64,000 nt of DNA from a virus. Location of the stretch: positions 81,871 to 145,870 of the IMG/VR virus record IMGVR_UViG_3300020201_000009; one strand, 5' to 3'. The notes below the pieces were generated by a model. It was given only the letters and a program-made list of their open reading frames with translations. It did not search any database and was not told the DNA's origin. Positions 17,073 through 64,000 of the stretch are shown here, one piece after another. The stretch's first letter is position 1. Each line of letters opens with the position of its first letter. The position numbers were made by a program, and so were the translations under genes.

Positions 17073-17656
17073 TGCAGAAAATTATATTGCTGACGGGTAC
17101 TAGGCGGGTAGGAAAGGACACTTTCTGGTCCCTCGTTTGTAAATACGAAACGGATTCCCTGCGTTTTGAGAGGTTCGCTTTTGCGGATGATTTAAAAGAC
17201 GAATGCGACTCTTTATGTTATTCGTTTTTCGAAAAGCATATCCACGAACTTACACCGGAAGAAAAGGAAATTTTTCGCCCAATTCTTATTACAGTGGGAA
17301 TGACTGCAAGAAAGATTGACGAATTATTTTGGGTAAAAAAACTTGTTAAGCATTTAACAATGTTTAAAAAGTTTTTTGATGGTGCCGAGTTTGTTCCTAT
17401 AATTTCGGACGTTCGATTTATGAATGAAGCCGATTACTTTATTAATAAATATGGTAAAGAAAACGTTTGTTTAGTAGGTATTTTTAGAGAAGATAACCCA
17501 GAGCCAACGGAAGAAGAAAAGATTCACGCCCCAATGATGGAAAAATATATTGATTATAGAGTAAACTGGCCTGTGGCGACTGACAATTTAAGTAGGTTAA
17601 ATATTTACGTAGAGGATTTTTACAACTATTGGATTAAAAAATATGGAATTAAATAA
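17072..17656 (+). CDS. Deoxynucleoside monophosphate kinase-like protein
   Basis: 194 aa. P-loop TGTRRVGKDTFW (8-19), an ITVGMTARKIDELFWVKKL segment and ISDVRFMNEADYF, as in T4 gp1-like dNMP kinases that phosphorylate dNMPs for DNA synthesis. It starts on the last base of the metallophosphatase gene. Family match is good; nucleotide preference is unknown. Confidence 0.75.
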   Translation: MQKIILLTGTRRVGKDTFWSLVCKYETDSLRFERFAFADDLKDECDSLCYSFFEKHIHELTPEEKEIFRPILITVGMTARKIDELFWVKKLVKHLTMFKKFFDGAEFVPIISDVRFMNEADYFINKYGKENVCLVGIFREDNPEPTEEEKIHAPMMEKYIDYRVNWPVATDNLSRLNIYVEDFYNYWIKKYGIK

Positions 17657-18047
17657 ACTGGAAAATAATAATATCGAAGTTATTAGTATTCAAGATCTAA
17701 AAAATAGAATCGAAAAATTACAGGAAGCTTGGGATAACGCGCTGACTAAGATTTTCAGAGATAATATTTATAGATTAATTGATGAACAAGAAAATCTTAA
17801 CTCGATTCATTGGGAAAATTACGCTTTTTACTTTAACGACGGAGATCCTTGCGAGTTTCGTGCTAGAGTAGATTCGGTGATTGGGGAGGATAAAGACGGG
17901 GCGGAGGTATCTTGTAACGATAAGATTATAGAGTTTTTGTCTTTATTTCCCGATAGATGGTATGAACTAAAATTCGGTAATGATTCTCAGGTAACGATTA
18001 GCAAAGACGGTACGTTACAGATTTCAGACTATACAGATCATAATTAA
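17643..18047 (+). CDS. Hypothetical protein, paralogue of the next gene
   Basis: 134 aa. Helical N-terminus, then YFNDGDPCEFRA, shared almost exactly with the next gene (YFNDGDECVFSA). Both end in short beta strands. The two look like a tandem duplication of a phage family of unknown role. Confidence 0.7.
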   Translation: MELNKLENNNIEVISIQDLKNRIEKLQEAWDNALTKIFRDNIYRLIDEQENLNSIHWENYAFYFNDGDPCEFRARVDSVIGEDKDGAEVSCNDKIIEFLSLFPDRWYELKFGNDSQVTISKDGTLQISDYTDHN

Positions 18048-18048
18048 A

Positions 18049-18414
18049 ATGTTGACTAAAAAAGAAATAACAAAAGCAATTAAAGATTATCGCAGTATCG
18101 GTGAATTGTTAATTGGTAATACCATTGGATATGCAATACAGGGCATCCCGAATTTAGAATCGGTCTCGATTAATTGCAATACGCCTTATTTTAATGATGG
18201 AGACGAATGTGTTTTTAGTGCAAACACCGATTATCCCGACTTCTGTGATAAAATTGGAACAAGAATTGATTTAGAAAAGGACGACGAAGAAAAAATTATT
18301 AACCTTCTTGGTTGCTTTGATGATGAATTTTATAGAGGTGTTTTCGGAGACCATGTAACTGTTATCTTCTTTAAGAATGGGAAAGTAAAAACAGAAACAT
18401 CAGGTATCGAATGA
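18049..18414 (+). CDS. Hypothetical protein, paralogue of the preceding gene
   Basis: 121 aa with the YFNDGDECVFSA motif (about 45-56). It starts one base after the preceding stop and ends in an ATGA overlap with the next gene. Function unknown. Confidence 0.7.
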   Translation: MLTKKEITKAIKDYRSIGELLIGNTIGYAIQGIPNLESVSINCNTPYFNDGDECVFSANTDYPDFCDKIGTRIDLEKDDEEKIINLLGCFDDEFYRGVFGDHVTVIFFKNGKVKTETSGIE

Positions 18415-19079: not shown

Positions 19080-19312
19080 TGAAAACCTACGAAGCTAGCG
19101 CTATATTAGAGTTTGAAACACTATCCGAACTATCTAGAGATGATTTATTTTTATTAAGCAGATCACTTGAAACAGTTCTGAATGGAAATATAAAAAAGTT
19201 CTTGAATTCGGGAAATTTTAAAACGTCTACCCTGCATCCTTTTGAACTTGACTTTTTCGTTAAAACTCACGATACTAAGGACGATAATTTAGACCAAAAA
19301 GATTCGATATGA
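19079..19312 (+). CDS. Hypothetical small protein
   Basis: 77 aa, overlapping the previous stop and the start of the macro gene. Not recognised; translationally coupled to the NAD+/ADP-ribose island. Confidence 0.6.
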   Translation: MKTYEASAILEFETLSELSRDDLFLLSRSLETVLNGNIKKFLNSGNFKTSTLHPFELDFFVKTHDTKDDNLDQKDSI

Positions 19313-19809
19313 TTAAACACGTTACTGGAAACTTATTAGATTTTACAAATTGGAATGTGATCGCACATTGTTGCAACGCCCAAAACCAAATGGGCAGTGG
19401 CATTGCTAAGGCGATCAGGGATGAATATCCAGTTGCTTGGGAAGTTTATTCTGAAGCTTACCGACTAAATGGTAACAAATTAGAACTTGGATCTATTACG
19501 GCGGCTGTTACAGCGGGCGGGAAAAGAATTATCAATATCGTAGGTCAAGAATTCTACGGTACAAAGAAAGAAAGCCTAAGGTATGTCGATTATGAAGCAA
19601 TCTATATGGGTTTAGAAGAAACTCGGTATATTTTGGAAAATGCCTTACCGCCATGCGATAAAGGTATAAAATACACTCTTGGACTGCCATATAAGATGGC
19701 ATCGGACCGCGCTGGTGGCAACTGGAAAATTATACTAACTATGATTGAAGTATTGTTTAAAGATTCTCCAATCAACGTTTATATTGTAAGTTTACCAAAT
19801 GACAAATAA
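19309..19809 (+). CDS. Macro domain protein (ADP-ribose binding or hydrolysis)
   Basis: 166 aa, a single macro domain. TGNLLDF (6-12) binds the adenine side. IAHCCNAQNQMGSGIAKAIRDEYP (18-41, quoted in part elsewhere) holds the conserved Asn23 and glycine loop MGSGIA (28-33) that contact the distal ribose. RIINIVGQ and a C-terminal strand complete the fold. This subtype (Poa1/TARG1/DarG-like) removes ADP-ribose from substrates or dephosphorylates ADP-ribose 1''-phosphate. The position, two genes before NAMPT/PRPP-synthetase homologues and near NADAR, supports a role in ADP-ribose handling. Confidence 0.85.
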   Translation: MIKHVTGNLLDFTNWNVIAHCCNAQNQMGSGIAKAIRDEYPVAWEVYSEAYRLNGNKLELGSITAAVTAGGKRIINIVGQEFYGTKKESLRYVDYEAIYMGLEETRYILENALPPCDKGIKYTLGLPYKMASDRAGGNWKIILTMIEVLFKDSPINVYIVSLPNDK

Positions 19810-20023
19810 AATTTTTAAACAAAAAGATATCTATATCTTGGAGGCGATTAAGTTTCGCGCTCAAAAGAAATTGGCGGAAATTCAAGAATTGTCGGATTTC
19901 GCAGGAGAAATTTTGGGAGTTAAAGGAGACAGCGATTGGCTCTGTGATTATATATATGATCTAGAAACAACGACACAAGATTTATTAAATGGATTAAAGA
20001 TTAGATTAGAGAACAAAGAATAA
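19799..20023 (+). CDS. Hypothetical small helical protein
   Basis: 74 aa, predicted helical with many charged residues. It overlaps the macro gene by 11 bases and ends four bases before the NAMPT-family gene, so it is translated within the island. No motif. Confidence 0.6.
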   Translation: MTNKIFKQKDIYILEAIKFRAQKKLAEIQELSDFAGEILGVKGDSDWLCDYIYDLETTTQDLLNGLKIRLENKE

Positions 20024-20027
20024 TAAT

Positions 20028-21530
20028 ATGCTACAAATACTGCCAGTAATTCAAAATGACTTTTATAAGCAAGGTCATTTTAAAATGTACCCAGAAGGTA
20101 CAACAAAAATCTATAGCAACCTGACTCCACGGAAAAGCCGTATTCCCGGTATAAATCATGCCGTACTTTTTGGAACACAATATTTTATTAAAGAATATCT
20201 AATTAAACAATGGAATGATAATTTTTTTACCAAAAAATGGGAAGATATATCACTAGAGTATACAACGATCATTAACTCTACTCTTGGCCCCGATGCAATT
20301 TCGATTAATCACGTTCACGAGTTACACAAGCTTGGCTATCTCCCACTTTCGATTAAGAGTTTACCGGAAGGTTCGAAAGTCCCTATTCGTTGCGCGTGCT
20401 TGACCATTACGAATACGGTAGATCATGCTTATTGGCTTGTTAATTTCTTGGAAACCATCCTTTCAACTGTCACTTGGTCGCCTTCGACTGTAGCAACTAT
20501 TGCTCAGGAATTGAAGAGAGTTTTAATGAAGTACGCAAAAGAAACTGGAAACGAGGCATTTGTACAATGGCAGGGGCATGATTTCTCCATGCGCGGGATG
20601 TCTAGTTTGGAGTCAGCCTGTGTCAATGGCGGCGCTCATTTAACTTCTTTCACGGGCACGGATACTATTCCAGCCATCCAGTGGTTAAAAGAGTATTATT
20701 GCGCCGATTATACAAAGATGCTGGTGGGTGCCAGTGTGCCAGCTACAGAGCACTCTATTATGTGCATGGGTAGCCAAGAAGGTGAGTTATCGACCTTTAA
20801 ACGTTTACTCGATTTATTTCCAAGAGGAATTCTATCTGTTGTATCCGATACATGGTCGCTGATGAAAGTTGTTCTAGAAATCCTGCCAGCACTAAAAGAG
20901 CAAATATTAGCTCGTGAGGGGACTCTTACTATTCGCCCTGATTCATTTTGGACAGATCCAGTAGATTGCCTATGCGGGTTTGATGGTTATCACCCCCAAA
21001 TGGCGAATATGGGAGCGGCTGAGATTGAAGTTGTACGTAAAGGTCTTATTGAATCTCTTTGGGATTTATTCGGCGGCACGGTCAATATTAAGGGCTATAA
21101 AGAGTTAGACCCTCACATCTTTGCTATCTATGGAGATTCTATCACAATTGATCGCGCAACGAAAATTTCAGAGAGGCTTAAAGAAAAGGGGTTTGCTTCC
21201 ACAAACTGTTGTTACGGTGTGGGTTCCTTTAGCTACCAATTTAACACAAGGGATGTACTTGGATTTGCTGTTAAAGCGACATATGGAGTAGTTAATGGAG
21301 AGGCCCGCAATATCTTTAAAGATCCAATTACAGATGATGGAATGAAGAAGTCAGCAAAGGGTCTTTTAAGAGTCGATAAAATTAACGGAGAATATGTAAT
21401 GAGAGATTGCGTTAGTATTGAAGAAGAAAAGGGTGGCGAACTATTAGAAGTATTTCGTGATAGTAAACTTTTAATTGAAACCACGCTGACAGAAGTTCGC
21501 CATCGTATTAATGAAGGTATCGACATTTAA
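20028..21530 (+). CDS. NAMPT-family phosphoribosyltransferase (Nampt or Namat)
   Basis: 500 aa, close to the full NAMPT length. Active-site positions are kept: DFSMRG (185-190), GTDT with Asp212, PATEHS with His242, IRPDS with Arg303 and Asp305, and YGDSITID (368-375). Near the C-terminus FKDPITDDGMKKSAKG matches the phosphate-binding lysine segment. A classical Nampt makes NMN from nicotinamide and PRPP. In NARP1 the homologue Namat joins nicotinamide to ADP-ribose pyrophosphate, giving NAD+ directly. The PRPP-synthetase-like gene starts 15 bases downstream, the NARP1 arrangement. Family is certain; which substrate is used is not. Confidence 0.93.
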   Translation: MLQILPVIQNDFYKQGHFKMYPEGTTKIYSNLTPRKSRIPGINHAVLFGTQYFIKEYLIKQWNDNFFTKKWEDISLEYTTIINSTLGPDAISINHVHELHKLGYLPLSIKSLPEGSKVPIRCACLTITNTVDHAYWLVNFLETILSTVTWSPSTVATIAQELKRVLMKYAKETGNEAFVQWQGHDFSMRGMSSLESACVNGGAHLTSFTGTDTIPAIQWLKEYYCADYTKMLVGASVPATEHSIMCMGSQEGELSTFKRLLDLFPRGILSVVSDTWSLMKVVLEILPALKEQILAREGTLTIRPDSFWTDPVDCLCGFDGYHPQMANMGAAEIEVVRKGLIESLWDLFGGTVNIKGYKELDPHIFAIYGDSITIDRATKISERLKEKGFASTNCCYGVGSFSYQFNTRDVLGFAVKATYGVVNGEARNIFKDPITDDGMKKSAKGLLRVDKINGEYVMRDCVSIEEEKGGELLEVFRDSKLLIETTLTEVRHRINEGIDI

Positions 21531-21545
21531 TATAAAAACATAAAA

Positions 21546-22442
21546 ATGAGTTCTAAAAATAACATTAGAGTCTTTTCAAGTAATGACACCGGAGTAACTG
21601 AACTGGATATCCAATTCTGGGACTTTCCGGGAGGTGAGGTAGGAGTAAGACTAGATCCAGACAACGAAAAATTTGCTTTGAACGCATTAGATATCATGGT
21701 TTCTGCTAGAATTAGAGATCCCAAAGATATTATTCGTTTAATTATGGTCAATGATGCTTTAAACCGCTTCATTGGTACTATTAAGACCAAATATTTATTT
21801 CTACCTTACTTTCCGTATTCTCGTCAAGACAGGGTAGATTCGTTAAATTCTTGTGGTGAAGCGTTAAGCGTATCAGTAATGGCGGGGATTATTAATAATC
21901 TTCATTTTAATAAAGTTTTTGTTGCCGATTGCCATTCAGATGTAACGAGGGCTTTAGTTAAAAATATGAATGAACTGCCCCAGTGGGCATTAATCGCTAA
22001 TTGGGCCGAATTTAAAACGGTACTTAAAGATGCTCAATTAGTAAGCTGCGATGCGGGTGCTAATAAGAAAATTTCCGATTTGGCAAAGCGCTTGGGGAAA
22101 GATAGTTTTATCCGCGCCGATAAGAAACGTGATATCGCTACGGGGGAAATTTTAGAAACGGTTGTGTTTGCAGACAATTTAAATTCACAAGTTGTTGCTA
22201 TCGTTGACGATATCTGCGACGGTGGAAAAACTTTCCTTGAATTAGCAAAAGTATTAAAAGCGAAAAACGCCGGTAAAATTATTTTATTTGTTACTCATGG
22301 AATTTTTTCTAAGGGAACCAGTGCTCTTTTTGATGGTGGTATTGATGAAATTTGGACCACTAATAGTTTTCGTTCGGATATTAGTGATCCACGAGTTCAA
22401 GTCTTAAACTTAGATAAAGTTGTTCTCCAACTAGATGTCTAA
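21546..22442 (+). CDS. PRPP-synthetase-family enzyme (Prs or Adps)
   Basis: 298 aa. ATP-binding FPYSRQDR (89-96), divalent-metal DCHSD (128-132) and the pyrophosphate/ribose loop VDDICDGGKTF (220-230) are present. Typical bacterial Prs has DDxIDTxGT in the last motif; the CDGGK version is a clear departure. The flexible-loop region reads ADKKRD (191-196) where Prs has DKRR. Prs makes PRPP from ribose 5-phosphate. The NARP1 enzyme Adps makes ADP-ribose pyrophosphate from ADP-ribose and ATP. Linkage to the NAMPT homologue and the altered loop favour Adps, but this is inference. Confidence 0.9.
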   Translation: MSSKNNIRVFSSNDTGVTELDIQFWDFPGGEVGVRLDPDNEKFALNALDIMVSARIRDPKDIIRLIMVNDALNRFIGTIKTKYLFLPYFPYSRQDRVDSLNSCGEALSVSVMAGIINNLHFNKVFVADCHSDVTRALVKNMNELPQWALIANWAEFKTVLKDAQLVSCDAGANKKISDLAKRLGKDSFIRADKKRDIATGEILETVVFADNLNSQVVAIVDDICDGGKTFLELAKVLKAKNAGKIILFVTHGIFSKGTSALFDGGIDEIWTTNSFRSDISDPRVQVLNLDKVVLQLDV

Positions 22443-22623
22443 AAAAAATAGTACAACAATCAGAGAGAAGTATAAATTGGCAATGATTCAATCTCTATTT
22501 GCCAGTAAAAATCTATCAGCAGAAATAACGCCCGAAGGAGCTATGCTAATTGCGACGTTTATAAATTTAACCGTTGAATATTTAGCTAAATATGACGAGT
22601 TAGTTATTAAAAAAGATTTATAG
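22435..22623 (+). CDS. Hypothetical small protein
   Basis: 62 aa, basic start then helical. It overlaps the PRPP-synthetase-like gene by eight bases. An AAAAGA/TCTTTT hairpin (22639-22657) follows it, before the NADAR gene. Not recognised. Confidence 0.55.
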   Translation: MSKKNSTTIREKYKLAMIQSLFASKNLSAEITPEGAMLIATFINLTVEYLAKYDELVIKKDL

Positions 22624-22666
22624 GGTTAAGATATTTAAAAAAGACTTAAAATCTTTTATATTTAAC

Positions 22667-23179
22667 ATGCGTACTACAGAAACACACGTATATTTTTATT
22701 CCGAAATTGAATTATATTCAAATTTCCATCGTTGCGAATTCACTGACCCAAATATCGGTCGAGTTTTTCAAAGTACCGAACAAGCCTTTATGTTCTATAA
22801 GGCTGATTTTTTTAGAGATTCAGCTATAGCAGCCACTTTATTAAACACACAAGAACCTAGTCAAGCGAAGGTTTTCGGTAGGCAAATCAGAAATTATAAC
22901 GATAGCTCTTGGGATATCATGCGTTATGCCTATATGGTATATGTCAATTACCTAAAGTTCTCCCAAAACCCCGCATTTAAAAAACAATTACTGGAAACTG
23001 GAGAACGAGTCTTGGCAGAAGCGTCACCATCGGATCTTATCTGGGGAATTGGGCTGTTGCAAGCAGACGATAATATTCTAGATGAATCAATGTGGAAGGG
23101 TCATAATTTGTTGGGCAAATCGTTAATGGAAGTGAGAGACAAAATCCGTAAAGAAGACAAGGCGTCAGTGAAATTATAA
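22667..23179 (+). CDS. NADAR-family N-glycosidase (YbiA-like)
   Basis: 170 aa. The family's motifs appear in order: ELYSNFHRCEF (15-25), QSTEQAFMFYKA (35-46), LLETGERVLAEASPSDLIWGIG (108-129, in parts) and GHNLLGKSLMEVR (145-157). NADAR enzymes cleave N-glycosidic bonds of ADP-ribosylated guanosine or riboflavin intermediates. DNA-modifying ARTs such as DarT occur in phage defence, and this enzyme near a macro domain could reverse such marks. It is separated from the enzyme pair by one small gene. Family is firm, role inferred. Confidence 0.9.
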   Translation: MRTTETHVYFYSEIELYSNFHRCEFTDPNIGRVFQSTEQAFMFYKADFFRDSAIAATLLNTQEPSQAKVFGRQIRNYNDSSWDIMRYAYMVYVNYLKFSQNPAFKKQLLETGERVLAEASPSDLIWGIGLLQADDNILDESMWKGHNLLGKSLMEVRDKIRKEDKASVKL

Positions 23180-23501
23180 AAAAAAAAAAAAATCCAATAA
23201 ACTGGTCAGTGAAAAATACCCCATCGTCGAGAATTACAAAAACACAATTGTTTTTCAGGTATACCGTGGAGAATTAGAATCGAGCGCGTTAGAAATTAAA
23301 ATTGCAACCCCCGATGTCGGCGAATTTATAGACGACTCCCTAAAAATAATTCTCTACTCCAACACCCGTATCATTAACAAGTTAATGATAAATTTAAGAA
23401 TGATAACAAAGTATTGTAAAATTGGAGATCGCTTTCCGGTAATACCAGTTTTATACTATTACAATTCGCTCGGAGTAAAATACCCAATTATTTATGGCTA
23501 A
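23172..23501 (+). CDS. Open frame without an ATG, after a 15-A run
   Basis: About 100 codons are open in a frame shifted by +1 from NADAR: KKSNKLVSEKYPIVENY.. to ..LGVKYPIIYG. Residue composition is protein-like and the stop sits inside the start of the next gene (ATGGCTAA), a coupling seen throughout the window. No ATG, GTG or TTG is available near the front; CTG 23202 is the best candidate. A run of 15 A (23178-23192) precedes it. It may use a rare start, depend on slippage, be a decayed gene, or reflect a homopolymer sequencing error. Confidence 0.5.
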   Translation, partial: NYKKKKKSNKLVSEKYPIVENYKNTIVFQVYRGELESSALEIKIATPDVGEFIDDSLKIILYSNTRIINKLMINLRMITKYCKIGDRFPVIPVLYYYNSLGVKYPIIYG

Positions 23502-37167: not shown

Positions 37168-37298
37168 AGCAAATAAATAGCGTAACAAAATTGTAACAAA
37201 AGGCTGGGGGGAATTGACCCTTGACTCATGAGGGATTCCCCTAGAGTCTCTTCCTCAGTTCAGAGCTAACAGCTTTGGCGCAAAAAAAACAAAAAAAA

Positions 37299-38228
37299 AT
37301 GGATTTGCAACCAACTTTAGATATTAAATCCGTACTGGAAACAGTCGGAACAAAATTAACTGATGAAAAAACTCTAACAGATGCTTTAATTAGTATCAAT
37401 GCTAATTTTACACCCCAAAGGGTAGATAACTATTATCTCTTTGGAGACCAAGCCTATAAGTCAGGAAAATGCGAAATAATTCGTAGTGATAACGGTAAAA
37501 GCCTCGGAACGATGGGGGAGAAATATAACATGGTTTCTAATCAAGAGGCTTTCTCGGTCTTAGCCGATATTGTCAAATATGGGCACGCTGTTTATGACCG
37601 GGGTGGAGAAGTGAAAGATAAATATTTCCTTAGTGTGAAACTTCCAATTTGTATAGCTCCGAAATGTAGGCCAAATGATTTGATTGAAATGCATTTTACG
37701 GGATTCAATTCATTCAATGGTGATATGGGGTTGTTATTTACCCTAAACGCCACTAGAAAATTTGGTAATACAATGTTTCACGCATTATTGAGTAATTTAT
37801 CAAAAGTTCGACACTCTGCTAAAGCCAAATCGAAACTAGATGAGAGTAAAGCCCATTTGGACTTTATTAGTAAAGAAACAAACGTTCTCCAAGCAAAACT
37901 GGATCTTCTCTGTGATATTCCTTGTAAAGAACAGGACGTAAGAGATATTTCCTCTTATATTTTGAAAGTCAAAGACGGCAACGAGGCCACGACAAGAGGA
38001 CTACGCAAAATTGATAAAATAGTAGAGTTGTTCTACGACAAATCAATTGGAAATTTAGGCGAGACTAGATATGATGCTTTTGTGGCTTTCAATGGTATGA
38101 TTGACCATTTTTCCACGAATAAGGAAACAACTGGAGGAACGAGGGACGAAAACAGATTTGAATCATCTTTAACGGGAGAAAATTCCAAACTCAAACTTGC
38201 CGCGCTAGAGGTTTTGCTACCAAATTAA
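37299..38228 (+). CDS. DUF932-family protein
   Basis: 309 aa from ATG 37299 (TTG 37275 would add eight residues). Domain features: an N-terminal helical part, KCEIIRSDNGKSLGTMGEKYNMVSNQEAF, FTGFNSFNGDMGL and a long helical C-terminus, as in phage/plasmid DUF932 proteins. The function is unsettled; many are plasmid- or phage-borne. A second, divergent member is at 46273. Confidence 0.75.
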   Translation: MDLQPTLDIKSVLETVGTKLTDEKTLTDALISINANFTPQRVDNYYLFGDQAYKSGKCEIIRSDNGKSLGTMGEKYNMVSNQEAFSVLADIVKYGHAVYDRGGEVKDKYFLSVKLPICIAPKCRPNDLIEMHFTGFNSFNGDMGLLFTLNATRKFGNTMFHALLSNLSKVRHSAKAKSKLDESKAHLDFISKETNVLQAKLDLLCDIPCKEQDVRDISSYILKVKDGNEATTRGLRKIDKIVELFYDKSIGNLGETRYDAFVAFNGMIDHFSTNKETTGGTRDENRFESSLTGENSKLKLAALEVLLPN

Positions 38229-46272: not shown

Positions 46273-47457
46273 ATGTCACACCAAATGTTAAATGTGGATG
46301 CACAGATGAGTAAAATGATGGAATGGCACCGTCTAACGACGGTTCTTCCCGTTCTTACAAGAGAGAATTGTATAACCTATGACATGGACGTTCTACCAAT
46401 GTATTCCCTATCGAAGGATATGGATACAATTTACGATGAGCCGGATGTAGTACGCATCCGTGCTAGTGATAACGGCATGGCGATTGGTAAGCCATTCAAC
46501 CCTAAAACATATTCATTCTTTTCACATAGTCAAGTATTTGACTTTGTTACAGGAATATTCGACAAGGTTGGATTGACAGCTAACATCGCTTCATCAGGGA
46601 CTTTCAAGAATCGTTCTCGGTATTACGTCTCCGCAGAGATGCCTGAGATGAAGGATTTGATGAATAATAAACATCCTGAGCAGTTGTTTCTAACTGCGAT
46701 TGACGGATGTGTTAAAGACGCGGAATTGAACGTCGGGCTTTCTATTGTTAAGCCTGTATGCGCGAATACCGTTAACATGGTGATTCAGGAAGTGTTATTG
46801 GCGGGTATAAAGGCTGGGCACACGGATATGAGCGATGTTAAACGCGCTCAACAATTCTGCCGAATTCGTCATAGTAAGAAATTCTTTGACAATCTTGAAC
46901 ATGCGAAGGATTTGATTGAAATGGTGTTTATGTCTTATAATGTCTATGGTGAACAAATAAAAGCTCTCGGTAAGATTCCGGTTCGTAAAGAAGAGGTCGA
47001 AGCAATTGTGACAGCGTTTCTTTTTCCATTGGCAACTAGCATTTCCATGTTGGAAGATTGCGAATTGATTAGTAAGAAATCTCTAAATCTTATTGGTGAT
47101 ATTACCAATTTGTTTGTCAATGGTGCGGGCAACGATGGCCTCACCACTTTGGATATGTATAATGGATTTACTGAAAAGTTCTCCAAGCGTCCAGAGTTGC
47201 TAGATACCGATGTAAATCGTGTTCAGCGTTTTGTATCGTCTTCACAGGACGGCGCATATAACCGTAAGAAGGCTGACTTCTTCAATTTGTTGAACGACCA
47301 AGAAAGTTTGGAAAAGGCTTGTGAAGATGGATTTACCATTCTCAAGGCTCAACCATTCCTTCAAGAATTGAAGACGAAGAATCGCAATTCTGGTAATGAT
47401 GAGGGTCGCGATTTTGAAAAAGAAGTCGAAAACGCGGAATTGCAAGACGTTCAGTAA
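46273..47457 (+). CDS. DUF932-family protein, second copy
   Basis: 394 aa. YSLSKDMDTIYDEP.., GMAIGKPFNPKTYSFFSHSQVFDF and a CANTVNMV segment (KPVCANTV..) match DUF932. Longer than the copy at 37299 and not a recent duplicate. Followed by two hairpins. Function unknown. Confidence 0.75.
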   Translation: MSHQMLNVDAQMSKMMEWHRLTTVLPVLTRENCITYDMDVLPMYSLSKDMDTIYDEPDVVRIRASDNGMAIGKPFNPKTYSFFSHSQVFDFVTGIFDKVGLTANIASSGTFKNRSRYYVSAEMPEMKDLMNNKHPEQLFLTAIDGCVKDAELNVGLSIVKPVCANTVNMVIQEVLLAGIKAGHTDMSDVKRAQQFCRIRHSKKFFDNLEHAKDLIEMVFMSYNVYGEQIKALGKIPVRKEEVEAIVTAFLFPLATSISMLEDCELISKKSLNLIGDITNLFVNGAGNDGLTTLDMYNGFTEKFSKRPELLDTDVNRVQRFVSSSQDGAYNRKKADFFNLLNDQESLEKACEDGFTILKAQPFLQELKTKNRNSGNDEGRDFEKEVENAELQDVQ

Positions 47458-61629: not shown

Positions 61630-62150
61630 ATGTTTATATGGTATGTTATAAACAAACCATTGTTTTTAGCAAGTTTTTAAAAATAATGGTGGGATGAAGA
61701 GAGGTAATGATAGGGGGTAAATAAGAGGAGATATGTTGATGATCAATGATTTATGTAAATATAGAGGTTTTGGTGGGTGGGTTTATCGTGTGCGACCCCT
61801 AAAATGGTAAAAGCACCACTTTTTGGTAATTGTGAACAACTTGTTAATAACTATAATGACCACTTCACATCTCTCTATATTTACTACTAATTACTATCAA
61901 CCACCAAAAACACAAAACATTGCTAAATAACAACTTACATGGGTAATTAACAGTTTCCCCACGTTTAAAAACGCCGCTAAATAATGCCCACATTATTGTA
62001 TCCACCTAAATAATACAGGTATCCACGAATGAGCCAAATAACTTGTATCGGACCTAGTGAAAAGTAACACATTTACCTCTGAAGAGTGGTAAACATTGTT
62101 TGTATCCATTATTATTATCAACAAAATGTATTCATATTATCATTACTAAA

Positions 62151-62250
62151 TGATTATTCATGATTTTCTCATGAAAATGCAATGGATTTGCGTTTTCGTG
62201 ATGGTGATTATTCATGATTTTCTCATGAAACGACACCAATTTGCGTTTTC
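62151..62250. repeat. Two ~47-bp direct repeats
   Basis: Copies at 62151-62197 and 62205-62250 share TGATTATTCATGATTTTCTC and end in ATTTGCGTTTTC, with a variable middle. Each has two TCATGA palindromes; copy 1 also forms a GAAAATGCAA/TTGCGTTTTC hairpin. Confidence 0.75.
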
Positions 62251-62569
62251 ATAAATGGGCGGATTCCGGCAAACCCGTGGTTTATACGCTCTCGCAAAAC
62301 CCTGGCCCTTGCTATCGGTTTGCTTTTCGTTCCCGTTTGCCTCGCAAGGCGAATCGGTTTTTGTCGGAAAAGGTTTACCTAGTGGTTGCGCGGTTTGAGC
62401 GGTTGTGAACGAGAAGGTGGGATGAAATTTTAGCGATAGCAACGGGAAAAACTGAAAACTGTATTCACTAAAAAAAAATCGTCGAAAAAGAGAAATATAG
62501 ATCGACAAGTTGAATATGCCTCTTCATAGTGTCGTTTGTTAGGAGGGGCAGTTTCCCACCTAATGATCT

Positions 62570-62598
62570 TTGACAGTCTTTCGTTGCGGGTTTCAAAT
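62570..62598 (+). promoter_or_regulatory. Possible promoter of the GC-rich gene
   Basis: TTGACA (62570-62575), a 17-base spacer, TCAAAT (62593-62598). A CCCGAGGC/GCTTCGGG hairpin follows (about 62603-62627) before an AAACAATAAA leader and ATG 62664. Confidence 0.5.
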
Positions 62599-62663
62599 TT
62601 TCCCCCGAGGCTTTAAACAGCTTCGGGAAACGTTAGATAATGCTAGTGTAAAACAATAAAGTC

Positions 62664-63218
62664 ATGAATCAAATCGCTAATATCAAATCCGCAACGAAAA
62701 CGCCAGTAACGGCAACGAAAACGCCAGAAAATCCGGCAGCGCCAGTAACTCCGCCAGCGGCAGAAATTCCGCCAGCGCCAGTAACTCCGCCGAAGAGCGC
62801 AAGCGAGATGCTTGCTAGTCTTCTGCTGCAAGCCGAAGAGTTGAAGAAAGATATCGAAGCTGAGAAGGTCCAAGCCGAAAAGGTTCAGGTCGAAGCGTGG
62901 AAGAGCATCGACGAGAAGCTCGAAGCGCTTCCCACCGCTTTCGGATTCACGTCTGAGACGAAACTAAGTGATTTCGTCGAACAACTCCTTCGGTTCAAAA
63001 ACCGAGGCACTGCGCGACCGAACTCGGTAGTCATTGGAAAATCCAACTCGCCCGAGGCGGGACGGAATCCGGATATGGTTGCAGCCAAGGCGAAAGCCTT
63101 GGAATTGTTGCGAGAAAACCGGCTTTCCGCATCGCAGATCGCGAACGAGTGCCAGATTTCAATCGGGACAATCGCAAACATCAAGGCCGCGAATGGATTG
63201 GTTCGCGGGCGTACGTAA
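62664..63218 (+). CDS. Pro/Ala-rich coiled-coil protein with helix-turn-helix
   Basis: 184 aa with GC-rich codons unlike the rest of the window. A T/P/A-rich N-terminus (to about 48), a coiled coil (LLLQAEELKKDIEAEKVQ..), GFTSETKLSDFVEQLLRF, then LSASQIANECQISIGTIANI, a clear helix-turn-helix. The plan repeats that of the 38343 gene. Likely DNA-binding. Confidence 0.7.
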   Translation: MNQIANIKSATKTPVTATKTPENPAAPVTPPAAEIPPAPVTPPKSASEMLASLLLQAEELKKDIEAEKVQAEKVQVEAWKSIDEKLEALPTAFGFTSETKLSDFVEQLLRFKNRGTARPNSVVIGKSNSPEAGRNPDMVAAKAKALELLRENRLSASQIANECQISIGTIANIKAANGLVRGRT

Positions 63219-63227
63219 GGATTCGAA

Positions 63228-63259
63228 AAACCCTAGGCTCAAAAGGCTTAGGGTTTTTT
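63228..63259 (+). terminator. Rho-independent terminator, inverted copy at 63454
   Basis: CCCTAGGC..GGCTTAGGG stem and T-run. The 32-base sequence is the exact reverse complement of 63454-63485. Confidence 0.85.
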
Positions 63260-63260
63260 C

Positions 63261-63436
63261 GCGTCTCGGTCTCGCCTCGGTCGGTCTCGGTCTCGCCTCG
63301 GTCGGTCTCGGTCTCGGTCTCGCCCTGGGTCTCGCCCTGGGTCTCGTCTTGAGACTCGGTCTCGTTTAGGTCTCGGTCTTACCCAGGTCGATCTAGGGCC
63401 GGTCTCGTCTAGGGCCGGTCTAGTCTCGTCTAGGGT
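63261..63436. repeat. GTCTCG repeat array
   Basis: 13 copies of GTCTCG, all on the + strand, often as GGTCTCG, with CCTCGGTCG, CCCTGG and TCTAGGGCCG spacers. Lies between two convergent terminators and encodes nothing. Confidence 0.85.
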
Positions 63437-63453
63437 CGATATCAAAGAGCGTA

Positions 63454-63485
63454 AAAAAACCCTAAGCCTTTTGAGCCTAGGGTTT
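63454..63485 (-). terminator. Terminator of the minus-strand gene
   Basis: Exact inverted copy of 63228-63259, positioned for the leftward gene 63507-63977. Confidence 0.85.
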
Positions 63486-63506
63486 GGGAGCGGATCCGGA
63501 AGCGGA

Positions 63507-63977
63507 TCAGAGTTTCGGGTCAAATTTGACCAAACCCGCTTTCATGTCGTACTTGAGCGAGTGGATTCCGTCCTGTGTCCATCCCGCTGCGGTCGAAATC
63601 GTTCTCGTCGCGATCCGGTCCGCCGAGCGCGGACCAACCAACGCGATCAACGCGTCGTAGGCAGCATCTGCCTTTGCCGAAGATTCGGCGGTGGTTGCCG
63701 TCGGAGCCCAAAGGTGATTTATGTAGGCCGCTAGGGCGAGAGAGACCGCCGTCGCGAACCCGGGTGTCCCCGTGGGAAGTAGCACGCCGAAGTCTCGTGC
63801 GAGCGATTGAATGTGCGCCATCGCAGGGTCCCCCAGCGTCTCGTACGCTCGGGCAATTGCGAGCCCATGGGCCATACTGGCGATGTTCTCTATCTCTAGG
63901 AACTGCGCGACTGAAAGATTCAGTCCCACGTTGAACTGCGCGTTATTTGCGCAGTTTAAGGGAAGTGTAGTATTCAT
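63507..63977 (-). CDS. Hypothetical Ala-rich protein on the minus strand
   Basis: 156 aa, GC-rich codons, helical and alanine-rich (MNTTLPLNCANNAQFN.. to ..GLVKFDPKL). The only supported minus-strand gene. It has its own terminator. Not recognised. Confidence 0.65.
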   Translation of the reverse strand: MNTTLPLNCANNAQFNVGLNLSVAQFLEIENIASMAHGLAIARAYETLGDPAMAHIQSLARDFGVLLPTGTPGFATAVSLALAAYINHLWAPTATTAESSAKADAAYDALIALVGPRSADRIATRTISTAAGWTQDGIHSLKYDMKAGLVKFDPKL

Positions 63978-64000
63978 ATAGAGGCGGGTTAGGTTAGAGT

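What the first reader, a model, noticed from the sequence alone, without database searches (positions are those of the whole stretch)
19309..23179. NAD+ reconstitution island: macro, NAMPT-like, PRPP-synthetase-like, NADAR
The NAMPT homologue (20028) and PRPP-synthetase homologue (21546) are adjacent, as in the phage NARP1 pathway where Adps makes ADP-ribose pyrophosphate and Namat joins it to nicotinamide to restore NAD+. NAMPT active-site residues are kept (Asp212, His242, Arg303, Asp305). Macro and NADAR genes flank the pair, so one block may both rebuild NAD+ and remove ADP-ribose marks. Alternative: an ordinary PRPP plus nicotinamide salvage route.
Basis: partly seen in the sequence, partly recalled or inferred. 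Interest (0 to 1): 0.92.

Follow-up and report, generated by a model that had tools for sequence, protein, structure and literature searches.

The report
Phage NAD+ rebuilding genes with ADP-ribose helpers
A large uncultured bacteriophage carries the two-enzyme NARP1 pathway that lets phages rebuild the coenzyme NAD+ after bacterial defences destroy it, flanked by two enzymes that probably release ADP-ribose; the pathway itself is known, but the repeated pairing of it with such helper genes across phages is little explored.

Summary
In detail: macro (19309-19809), NAMPT-like (20028-21530), PRPP-synthetase-like (21546-22442) and NADAR (22667-23179) genes lie together on the + strand of a 145,870-base viral contig. 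The NAMPT-like protein has the published Namat motif (GSFSYQFNTRD), the adenine-clamp arginine, and groups with the crystallised SPbetaL1 Namat (51% identity) apart from human, Xanthomonas and NARP2-type phage NAMPTs. The PRPP-synthetase-like protein groups with SPbetaL1 Adps and is Adps-like at 9 of 10 columns that separate Adps from Prs. AU tests reject the ordinary placement of either (p about 0.001). No NMN adenylyltransferase was found on the contig. So this is NARP1, a known anti-defence pathway. The macro neighbour is unlikely to be chance: of 121 dereplicated phage Namat loci, 17 hold a macro gene, 14 of these within 2.5 kb of Namat and 12 between Adps and Namat. NADAR adjacency (4 of 8) is not significant. 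Likely role of macro, perhaps NADAR: release ADP-ribose to feed Adps (inferred; already proposed for one Pakpunavirus). Everything biochemical is inference.

The parts
19309..19809 (+). Macro-domain protein, 166 aa, of the Poa1p / BT1257 / TARG1 / DarG group
   Evidence: PF01661 E=4e-4, PHROG 335 'phosphatase' E=7.7e-38, AlphaFold model pLDDT 88 best PDB hits BT1257, TARG1, DarG, Poa1p; profile of NARP1-linked macro proteins to Poa1p E=1.1e-21
19799..20023 (+). Small ORF, 74 aa, no relatives found; overlaps the end of the macro gene by 11 bases
20028..21530 (+). Namat (nicotinamide ADP-ribose transferase), 500 aa, with clamp residues R38, F401, F405, T407, D409 and catalytic H242
   Evidence: PDB 9w5x 500 bits vs human NAMPT 215 bits; motif; residue table; trees and AU test
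21546..22442 (+). Adps (ADP-ribose pyrophosphate synthetase), 298 aa; motifs CHSDVTRAL, DAGANKK, DDICDGGKTF
   Evidence: tree and AU test, discriminating columns, TIGR01251
22435..22623 (+). Small ORF, 62 aa, no relatives found; overlaps Adps by 8 bases
22667..23179 (+). NADAR protein, 170 aa, YbiA type; E38 and E118 align with E43 and E125 of P. nicotianae NADAR (8BAU)
   Evidence: PF08719 E=2.2e-43; 8bau E=3.6e-26 (residue positions counted on that alignment); residues from PMC11543638

Best explanation
The block is a phage NARP1 pathway with ADP-ribose-releasing helpers. When a host defence (TIR, SIR2, SEFIR and the like) cleaves NAD+ to nicotinamide and ADP-ribose, the phage Adps would transfer pyrophosphate from ATP to ADP-ribose, giving ADPR-PP, and the phage Namat would join ADPR-PP to nicotinamide, giving NAD+ in two steps without an NMN adenylyltransferase. 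The macro protein, and possibly the NADAR protein, would free ADP-ribose from ADPR-1''-phosphate, acyl-ADPR, or ADP-ribosylated nucleic acid or small signals, which removes the signal or mark and supplies substrate to Adps. Shown here: gene presence, family placement, clamp and catalytic residues, recurrence of macro genes at NARP1 loci. Inferred: all enzyme activities, the coupling of the helpers to NARP1, and co-transcription. The confidence given is for the NARP1 core; coupling of the macro gene I put at about 0.55 and of the NADAR gene at about 0.35.
For: Namat placement with 100/100 support and AU p=0.0014 against NAMPT; GSFSYQFNTRD matches the Namat-only consensus GSX-Phi-X-Phi-X-Phi-TRD of PMC12774641, while human, Xcc and NARP2-type phage NAMPTs lack the aromatic residues; the Arg40 equivalent R38 is kept. 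Adps placement 100/100 and AU p=0.001 against Prs; 9 of 10 discriminating columns Adps-like. Adps lies within 2.5 kb of Namat in 108 of 121 loci. No NMNAT-type (PF01467) match on the contig, with all 14 control genomes ringing. Macro near Namat in 14 loci vs 3 far only, p=1.5e-5; 12 between Adps and Namat; gene-order shuffle p<=5e-4; at least 11 state changes on the Namat tree, so repeated gain or loss. Named phages show it too: Direpillow8 Adps-macro-Namat and Pakpunavirus EPA1 Adps-Namat-macro. Precedent: RyDEP in a mycobacteriophage NARP1 operon feeds ADPR to Adps.
Against: No assay. NADAR adjacency is not above chance (4 near, 4 far, p=0.2). The nearest relatives L009 and L010 have NARP1 without macro or NADAR in the stretch held, so neither helper is required. 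The gene order Namat-Adps is the minority order (14 of 125). The macro protein keeps only part of the Poa1p pocket (Q27 and S30 where Poa1p has Ser30 and Gly33). The neighbourhood is a dense co-directional gene array, so adjacency alone does not show an operon. The binomial test treats loci as independent, which related phages are not.
Confidence: 0.87

Rival explanations
1. Ordinary nicotinamide salvage: Prs makes PRPP, NAMPT makes NMN, and the host's NMN adenylyltransferase finishes NAD+.
For: Both proteins are homologous to Prs and NAMPT and keep their catalytic residues; Namat also makes NMN from PRPP in vitro (PMC12774641).
Against: Trees, AU tests, clamp motif and discriminating columns all favour Adps/Namat. 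NARP2-type phages pair NAMPT with a nucleotidyltransferase gene (L091, L092), absent here.
Confidence: 0.08
2. NARP1 is real, but macro and NADAR are independent counter-defence genes (against DarT-type nucleic acid ADP-ribosylation or ADPR-derived signals) that share the region without metabolic coupling. This rival concerns only the helper part and is compatible with the NARP1 core.
For: Nearest relatives lack them; NADAR proximity is at chance level; macro and NADAR genes are common in large phages (PMC9503650).
Against: Macro genes are concentrated next to and inside Adps-Namat pairs, with overlapping gene ends in L045 and L126.
Confidence: 0.4
3. The macro protein is a metabolite-repair enzyme of the pathway: ADPR-PP decays to ADPR-1''-phosphate or its 1'',2''-cyclic form, and the Poa1p-like macro returns it to ADP-ribose.
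For: Poa1p, an ADP-ribose-1''-phosphatase, is among the closest solved relatives of the family profile (E=1e-21); the gene often lies between Adps and Namat. The decay route is by analogy with PRPP (own knowledge, not tested).
Against: No activity data; ADPR-PP decay products in cells are not described in what I could read; the residue match to Poa1p is partial.
Confidence: 0.12

Closest known systems
NARP1 of Bacillus phage SPbetaL1 (Adps + Namat; Namat structures described in PMC12774641)
   Same: Both enzymes; 51% identity in Namat; nicotinamide/ribose contacts and the adenine clamp kept
   Different: Gene order reversed (Namat before Adps); macro and NADAR flank; clamp position 7 is Phe instead of Tyr, within the published consensus
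NARP1 + macro of Pseudomonas phage Adele and other Pakpunavirus (PMC12846349)
   Same: Adps, Namat and a Poa1p-like macro gene; the same feeding hypothesis is already published for Adele
   Different: There the macro gene lies downstream of Namat, and the paper does not mention NADAR
RyDEP within the NARP1 operon of mycobacteriophage DyoEdafos (PMC13232231)
   Same: A third gene in a NARP1 locus that makes free ADP-ribose for Adps, shown biochemically
   Different: RyR-domain cADPR glycosidase; no RyR match on this contig (but no control genome rang, so absence is not shown)
NARP2-type NAMPT + NMN adenylyltransferase of phages such as IME-SM1 and phiCbK
   Same: Homologous NAMPT fold and catalytic residues
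   Different: No aromatic clamp motif, separate clade, and the partner gene is a nucleotidyltransferase, not Adps
NADAR of Phytophthora nicotianae (8BAU) and DarT1-linked NADARs (PMC11543638)
   Same: Equivalents of E43 and E125 kept; likely the same ADPr N-glycosidase chemistry
   Different: No DarT-like gene recognised among the neighbours tested; substrate unknown

Membership tests
NARP1 | Namat with the GSX-Phi-X-Phi-X-Phi-TRD selectivity motif and the variable-loop stacking residue | tested here: met
   GSFSYQFNTRD, R38
NARP1 | Namat phylogenetically distinct from NAMPT and grouped with a validated Namat | tested here: met
   100/100 support; AU p=0.0014
NARP1 | Adps gene next to Namat, grouping with a validated Adps and not with Prs | tested here: met
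   15-base gap; 100/100 support; AU p=0.001; 9 of 10 discriminating columns
NARP1 | ADP-ribose + ATP to ADPR-PP, then + nicotinamide to NAD+ | not testable with these tools
   needs purified enzymes
NARP1 | Restores growth or plaquing against an NAD+-depleting defence | not testable with these tools
   needs an in vivo assay
NARP2 / canonical NAMPT salvage | NAMPT-type sequence at the clamp and NAMPT clade | tested here: not met
NARP2 / canonical NAMPT salvage | Phage-encoded NMN adenylyltransferase | tested here: not met
   no PF01467 match on 145,870 bases (contig may be incomplete); 14 of 14 controls ring
DarG macrodomain antitoxin | NCBIfam DarG equivalog score over cut-off | tested here: not met
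   21.5 bits against a cut-off of 250, partial match
Poa1p-like ADPR-1''-phosphatase | Poa1p residues His23, Asn26, Ser30, Gly33 | tested here: inconclusive
   H20 and N23 kept, Q27 and S30 differ; fold and profile match
NADAR (YbiA type) | NADAR domain with the two conserved glutamates | tested here: met
   PF08719 148.7 bits; E38, E118

The most novel reading that the evidence does not exclude
NARP1 is modular: the Adps-Namat core is repeatedly fitted with exchangeable front-end enzymes (macro, PF15891 DrHyd-like, HAD-like phosphatase, NADAR, RyR) that convert different NAD+-derived immune products or marks into free ADP-ribose, so that phages both erase the signal and recycle it to NAD+. 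This phage carries two such front ends.
Probability: 0.35. Interest if true: 0.72.

Novelty: new member of a known kind. Interest (0 to 1): 0.45.

Why it matters
The NARP1 core is a published anti-defence pathway, so this locus mainly adds a well-supported, divergent member with a reversed gene order. The wider result is that genes for ADP-ribose-processing enzymes sit inside or beside Adps-Namat pairs more often than chance allows, in many phage lineages. If the coupling holds, phages would turn several kinds of immune signal or ADP-ribose mark into NAD+, and unknown genes found between Adps and Namat become direct candidates for new anti-defence enzymes.

Tried and rejected
Ordinary PRPP salvage: rejected by trees, AU tests, motif and missing NMN adenylyltransferase. 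DarG membership of the macro protein: rejected (21.5 bits against a cut-off of 250). NADAR as a specific NARP1 partner: adjacency not above chance. The original NARP1 paper (Nature 2024) is not held, so its criteria were taken from PMC12774641. KVP40's own nadV was not in the stretch fetched; a related Schizotequatrovirus was used instead. The first macro relatives found in GenBank (Rheinheimera Barba phages) have no NARP1 gene annotated in the stretch seen.

Full report
What is there. The window is bases 81,871-145,870 of a 145,870-base viral record. Replication genes (DNA polymerase, primase, helicase, RNA ligase) and four tRNAs mark it as a large phage genome. In 19309-23179, six + strand ORFs follow one another, from an 11-base overlap to a 43-base gap: macro, 74-aa ORF, NAMPT-like, PRPP-synthetase-like, 62-aa ORF, NADAR. 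Family searches confirm all four named domains. The genes before and after are also on the + strand, so an operon is plausible but not shown.

Is the NAMPT-like protein Namat? By sequence it is far closer to the PDB entries 9w5x/9w5w (500 bits) than to human NAMPT (215 bits). tblastn finds the 9w5x sequence at 100% identity in Bacillus phage SPbetaL1, the phage whose Namat structures are described in PMC12774641. [quoted passage not shown] The window protein reads GSFSYQFNTRD and has Arg38 at the Arg40 position; the controls (human, Xcc, IME-SM1, RB43, KVP40-like and phiCbK NAMPT) have no Ser at position 2 and no aromatic residue at positions 3 and 7. The listed contacts to nicotinamide and the first ribose-phosphate are kept except A362, which is Ser here as in the other Namats compared. 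In the trees the window lies in the Namat clade with 100% support; holding it with NAMPTs costs 32.6 log units, AU p=0.0014.

Is the PRPP-synthetase-like protein Adps? The residues that set Adps specificity are not known (PMC12774641 says so), so phylogeny and column comparison were used. With the SPbetaL1 Adps as reference and E. coli plus six viral Prs as controls, the window groups with Adps (100/100) and AU rejects Prs (p=0.00105). Ten columns separate Adps from Prs in this sample; the window is Adps-like in nine, the exception being C129 where Adps has Pro. Caveats: the Prs sample is small, and the split between the groups is drawn with a midpoint root.

Is NARP2-type salvage possible? 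IME-SM1 and phiCbK show how it looks: NAMPT beside a nucleotidyltransferase. No such domain was found on this contig although every control genome rang. The contig may be incomplete.

Are macro and NADAR part of it? I collected 136 Namat loci from IMG/VR and GenBank records and dereplicated them to 121. Adps lies within 2.5 kb in 108. Macro genes were detected in 17 loci; in 14 within 2.5 kb of Namat, although that zone is only 30% of the sequence held (p=1.5e-5), and in 12 between Adps and Namat. Shuffling gene order gives a mean of 5.6 loci with macro within three genes of the pair, against 14 seen (p<=5e-4). On the Namat tree the presence of macro needs at least 11 changes, so the link arose or was lost many times and is not one inherited block. 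Gene ends overlap in L126 (Adps-macro-Namat) and L045. Named phages agree: Vibrio phage Direpillow8 gp175, between Adps and Namat, and EPA1 gp19, downstream of Namat, are macro proteins by Pfam. For NADAR the count is 4 near and 4 far only, p=0.2; three other loci (L020, L138, L169) place it close to the pair, so a link is possible but unproven. Only this window has both within 2.5 kb of Namat. The two nearest relatives of the window Namat, L009 and L010, have neither in the stretch held.

What would they do? The macro model (pLDDT 88) is closest in fold to BT1257, TARG1, DarG and Poa1p, and a profile of NARP1-linked macro proteins matches Poa1p, an ADP-ribose-1''-phosphatase, at E=1e-21, ahead of TARG1 and DarG. 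Poa1p's His23 and Asn26 are kept, Ser30 and Gly33 are not. The NADAR protein is YbiA-type and keeps the two glutamates that lie at the ADP-ribose in 8BAU. Enzymes of both kinds release ADP-ribose from conjugates, and free ADP-ribose is the substrate of Adps. Feeding of NARP1 by a neighbouring glycosidase has been shown for RyDEP (PMC13232231) and proposed for the macro gene of phage Adele (PMC12846349). PMC9503650 noted NADAR near phage NAD+ salvage genes in 2022. So the idea is not new; the counts given here are, as far as I could search.

Unexpected by-product. Two other families are linked to NARP1 loci even more tightly than macro: a HAD-like protein (21 loci near, none far) and a PF15891 nucleoside-deoxyribosyltransferase-like protein (21 near, 2 far). 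PF15891 has no match on this contig, and no HAD-family member was detected beside Namat here. The HAD assignment rests on my reading of its motifs (FDFDNT, LLDDR); Pfam gave no hit.

Verdict. Coupling of macro genes to the pathway is more likely than not in general, less certain for this phage and for NADAR. As a NARP1 member it is a well-formed case of a known system; the recurring third genes are what deserves follow-up.

Noticed in passing
L012:9592-9978, L018:7975-8400 and 19 further NARP1 loci: A small HAD-like protein lies within 2.5 kb of Namat in 21 loci and nowhere else in the stretches held, 17 times between Adps and Namat.
   Followed up: partly
L018:8637-9113, L140:9483-9968 and others: A PF15891 nucleoside 2-deoxyribosyltransferase-like protein is near Namat in 21 loci, far in 2, often between Adps and Namat; candidate ADPR-derivative glycosidase.
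   Followed up: partly
window 23184-23493: After a long run of A, an open frame of about 100 codons without an obvious start codon fills the gap between NADAR and the next gene; possible sequence error or unusual start.
   Followed up: no
window 17643-18047 and 18049-18414: Two adjacent ORFs are paralogues (E about 1e-7), a tandem duplication of unknown function.
   Followed up: no
window 62000-64000: G+C jumps from about 0.36 to 0.50 at the contig end, with repetitive frames; no Rfam match. Possibly a mis-assembled or foreign end.
   Followed up: partly
window 37275-38228 and 46273-47457: Two ORFs match the same PHROG of unknown function, 1221.
   Followed up: no
L045 and L113 (same contig IMGVR_UViG_3300042352_001190): One phage carries both an Adps in a NARP1 locus and a separate canonical Prs, which suggests that the two are not interchangeable.
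   Followed up: partly
window 21546-22442: Adps matches positions 14-222 of PHROG 12872 ('nicotinamide phosphoribosyl transferase', 547 positions), hinting at fused Adps-Namat proteins in some phages.
   Followed up: no
PDB 9ke8/9keo (found with window 20028-21530): A solved 'nicotinamide phosphoribosyltransferase' in the Namat clade has a degenerate clamp motif, GAQTYQRNTRD, and may differ in specificity.
   Followed up: no
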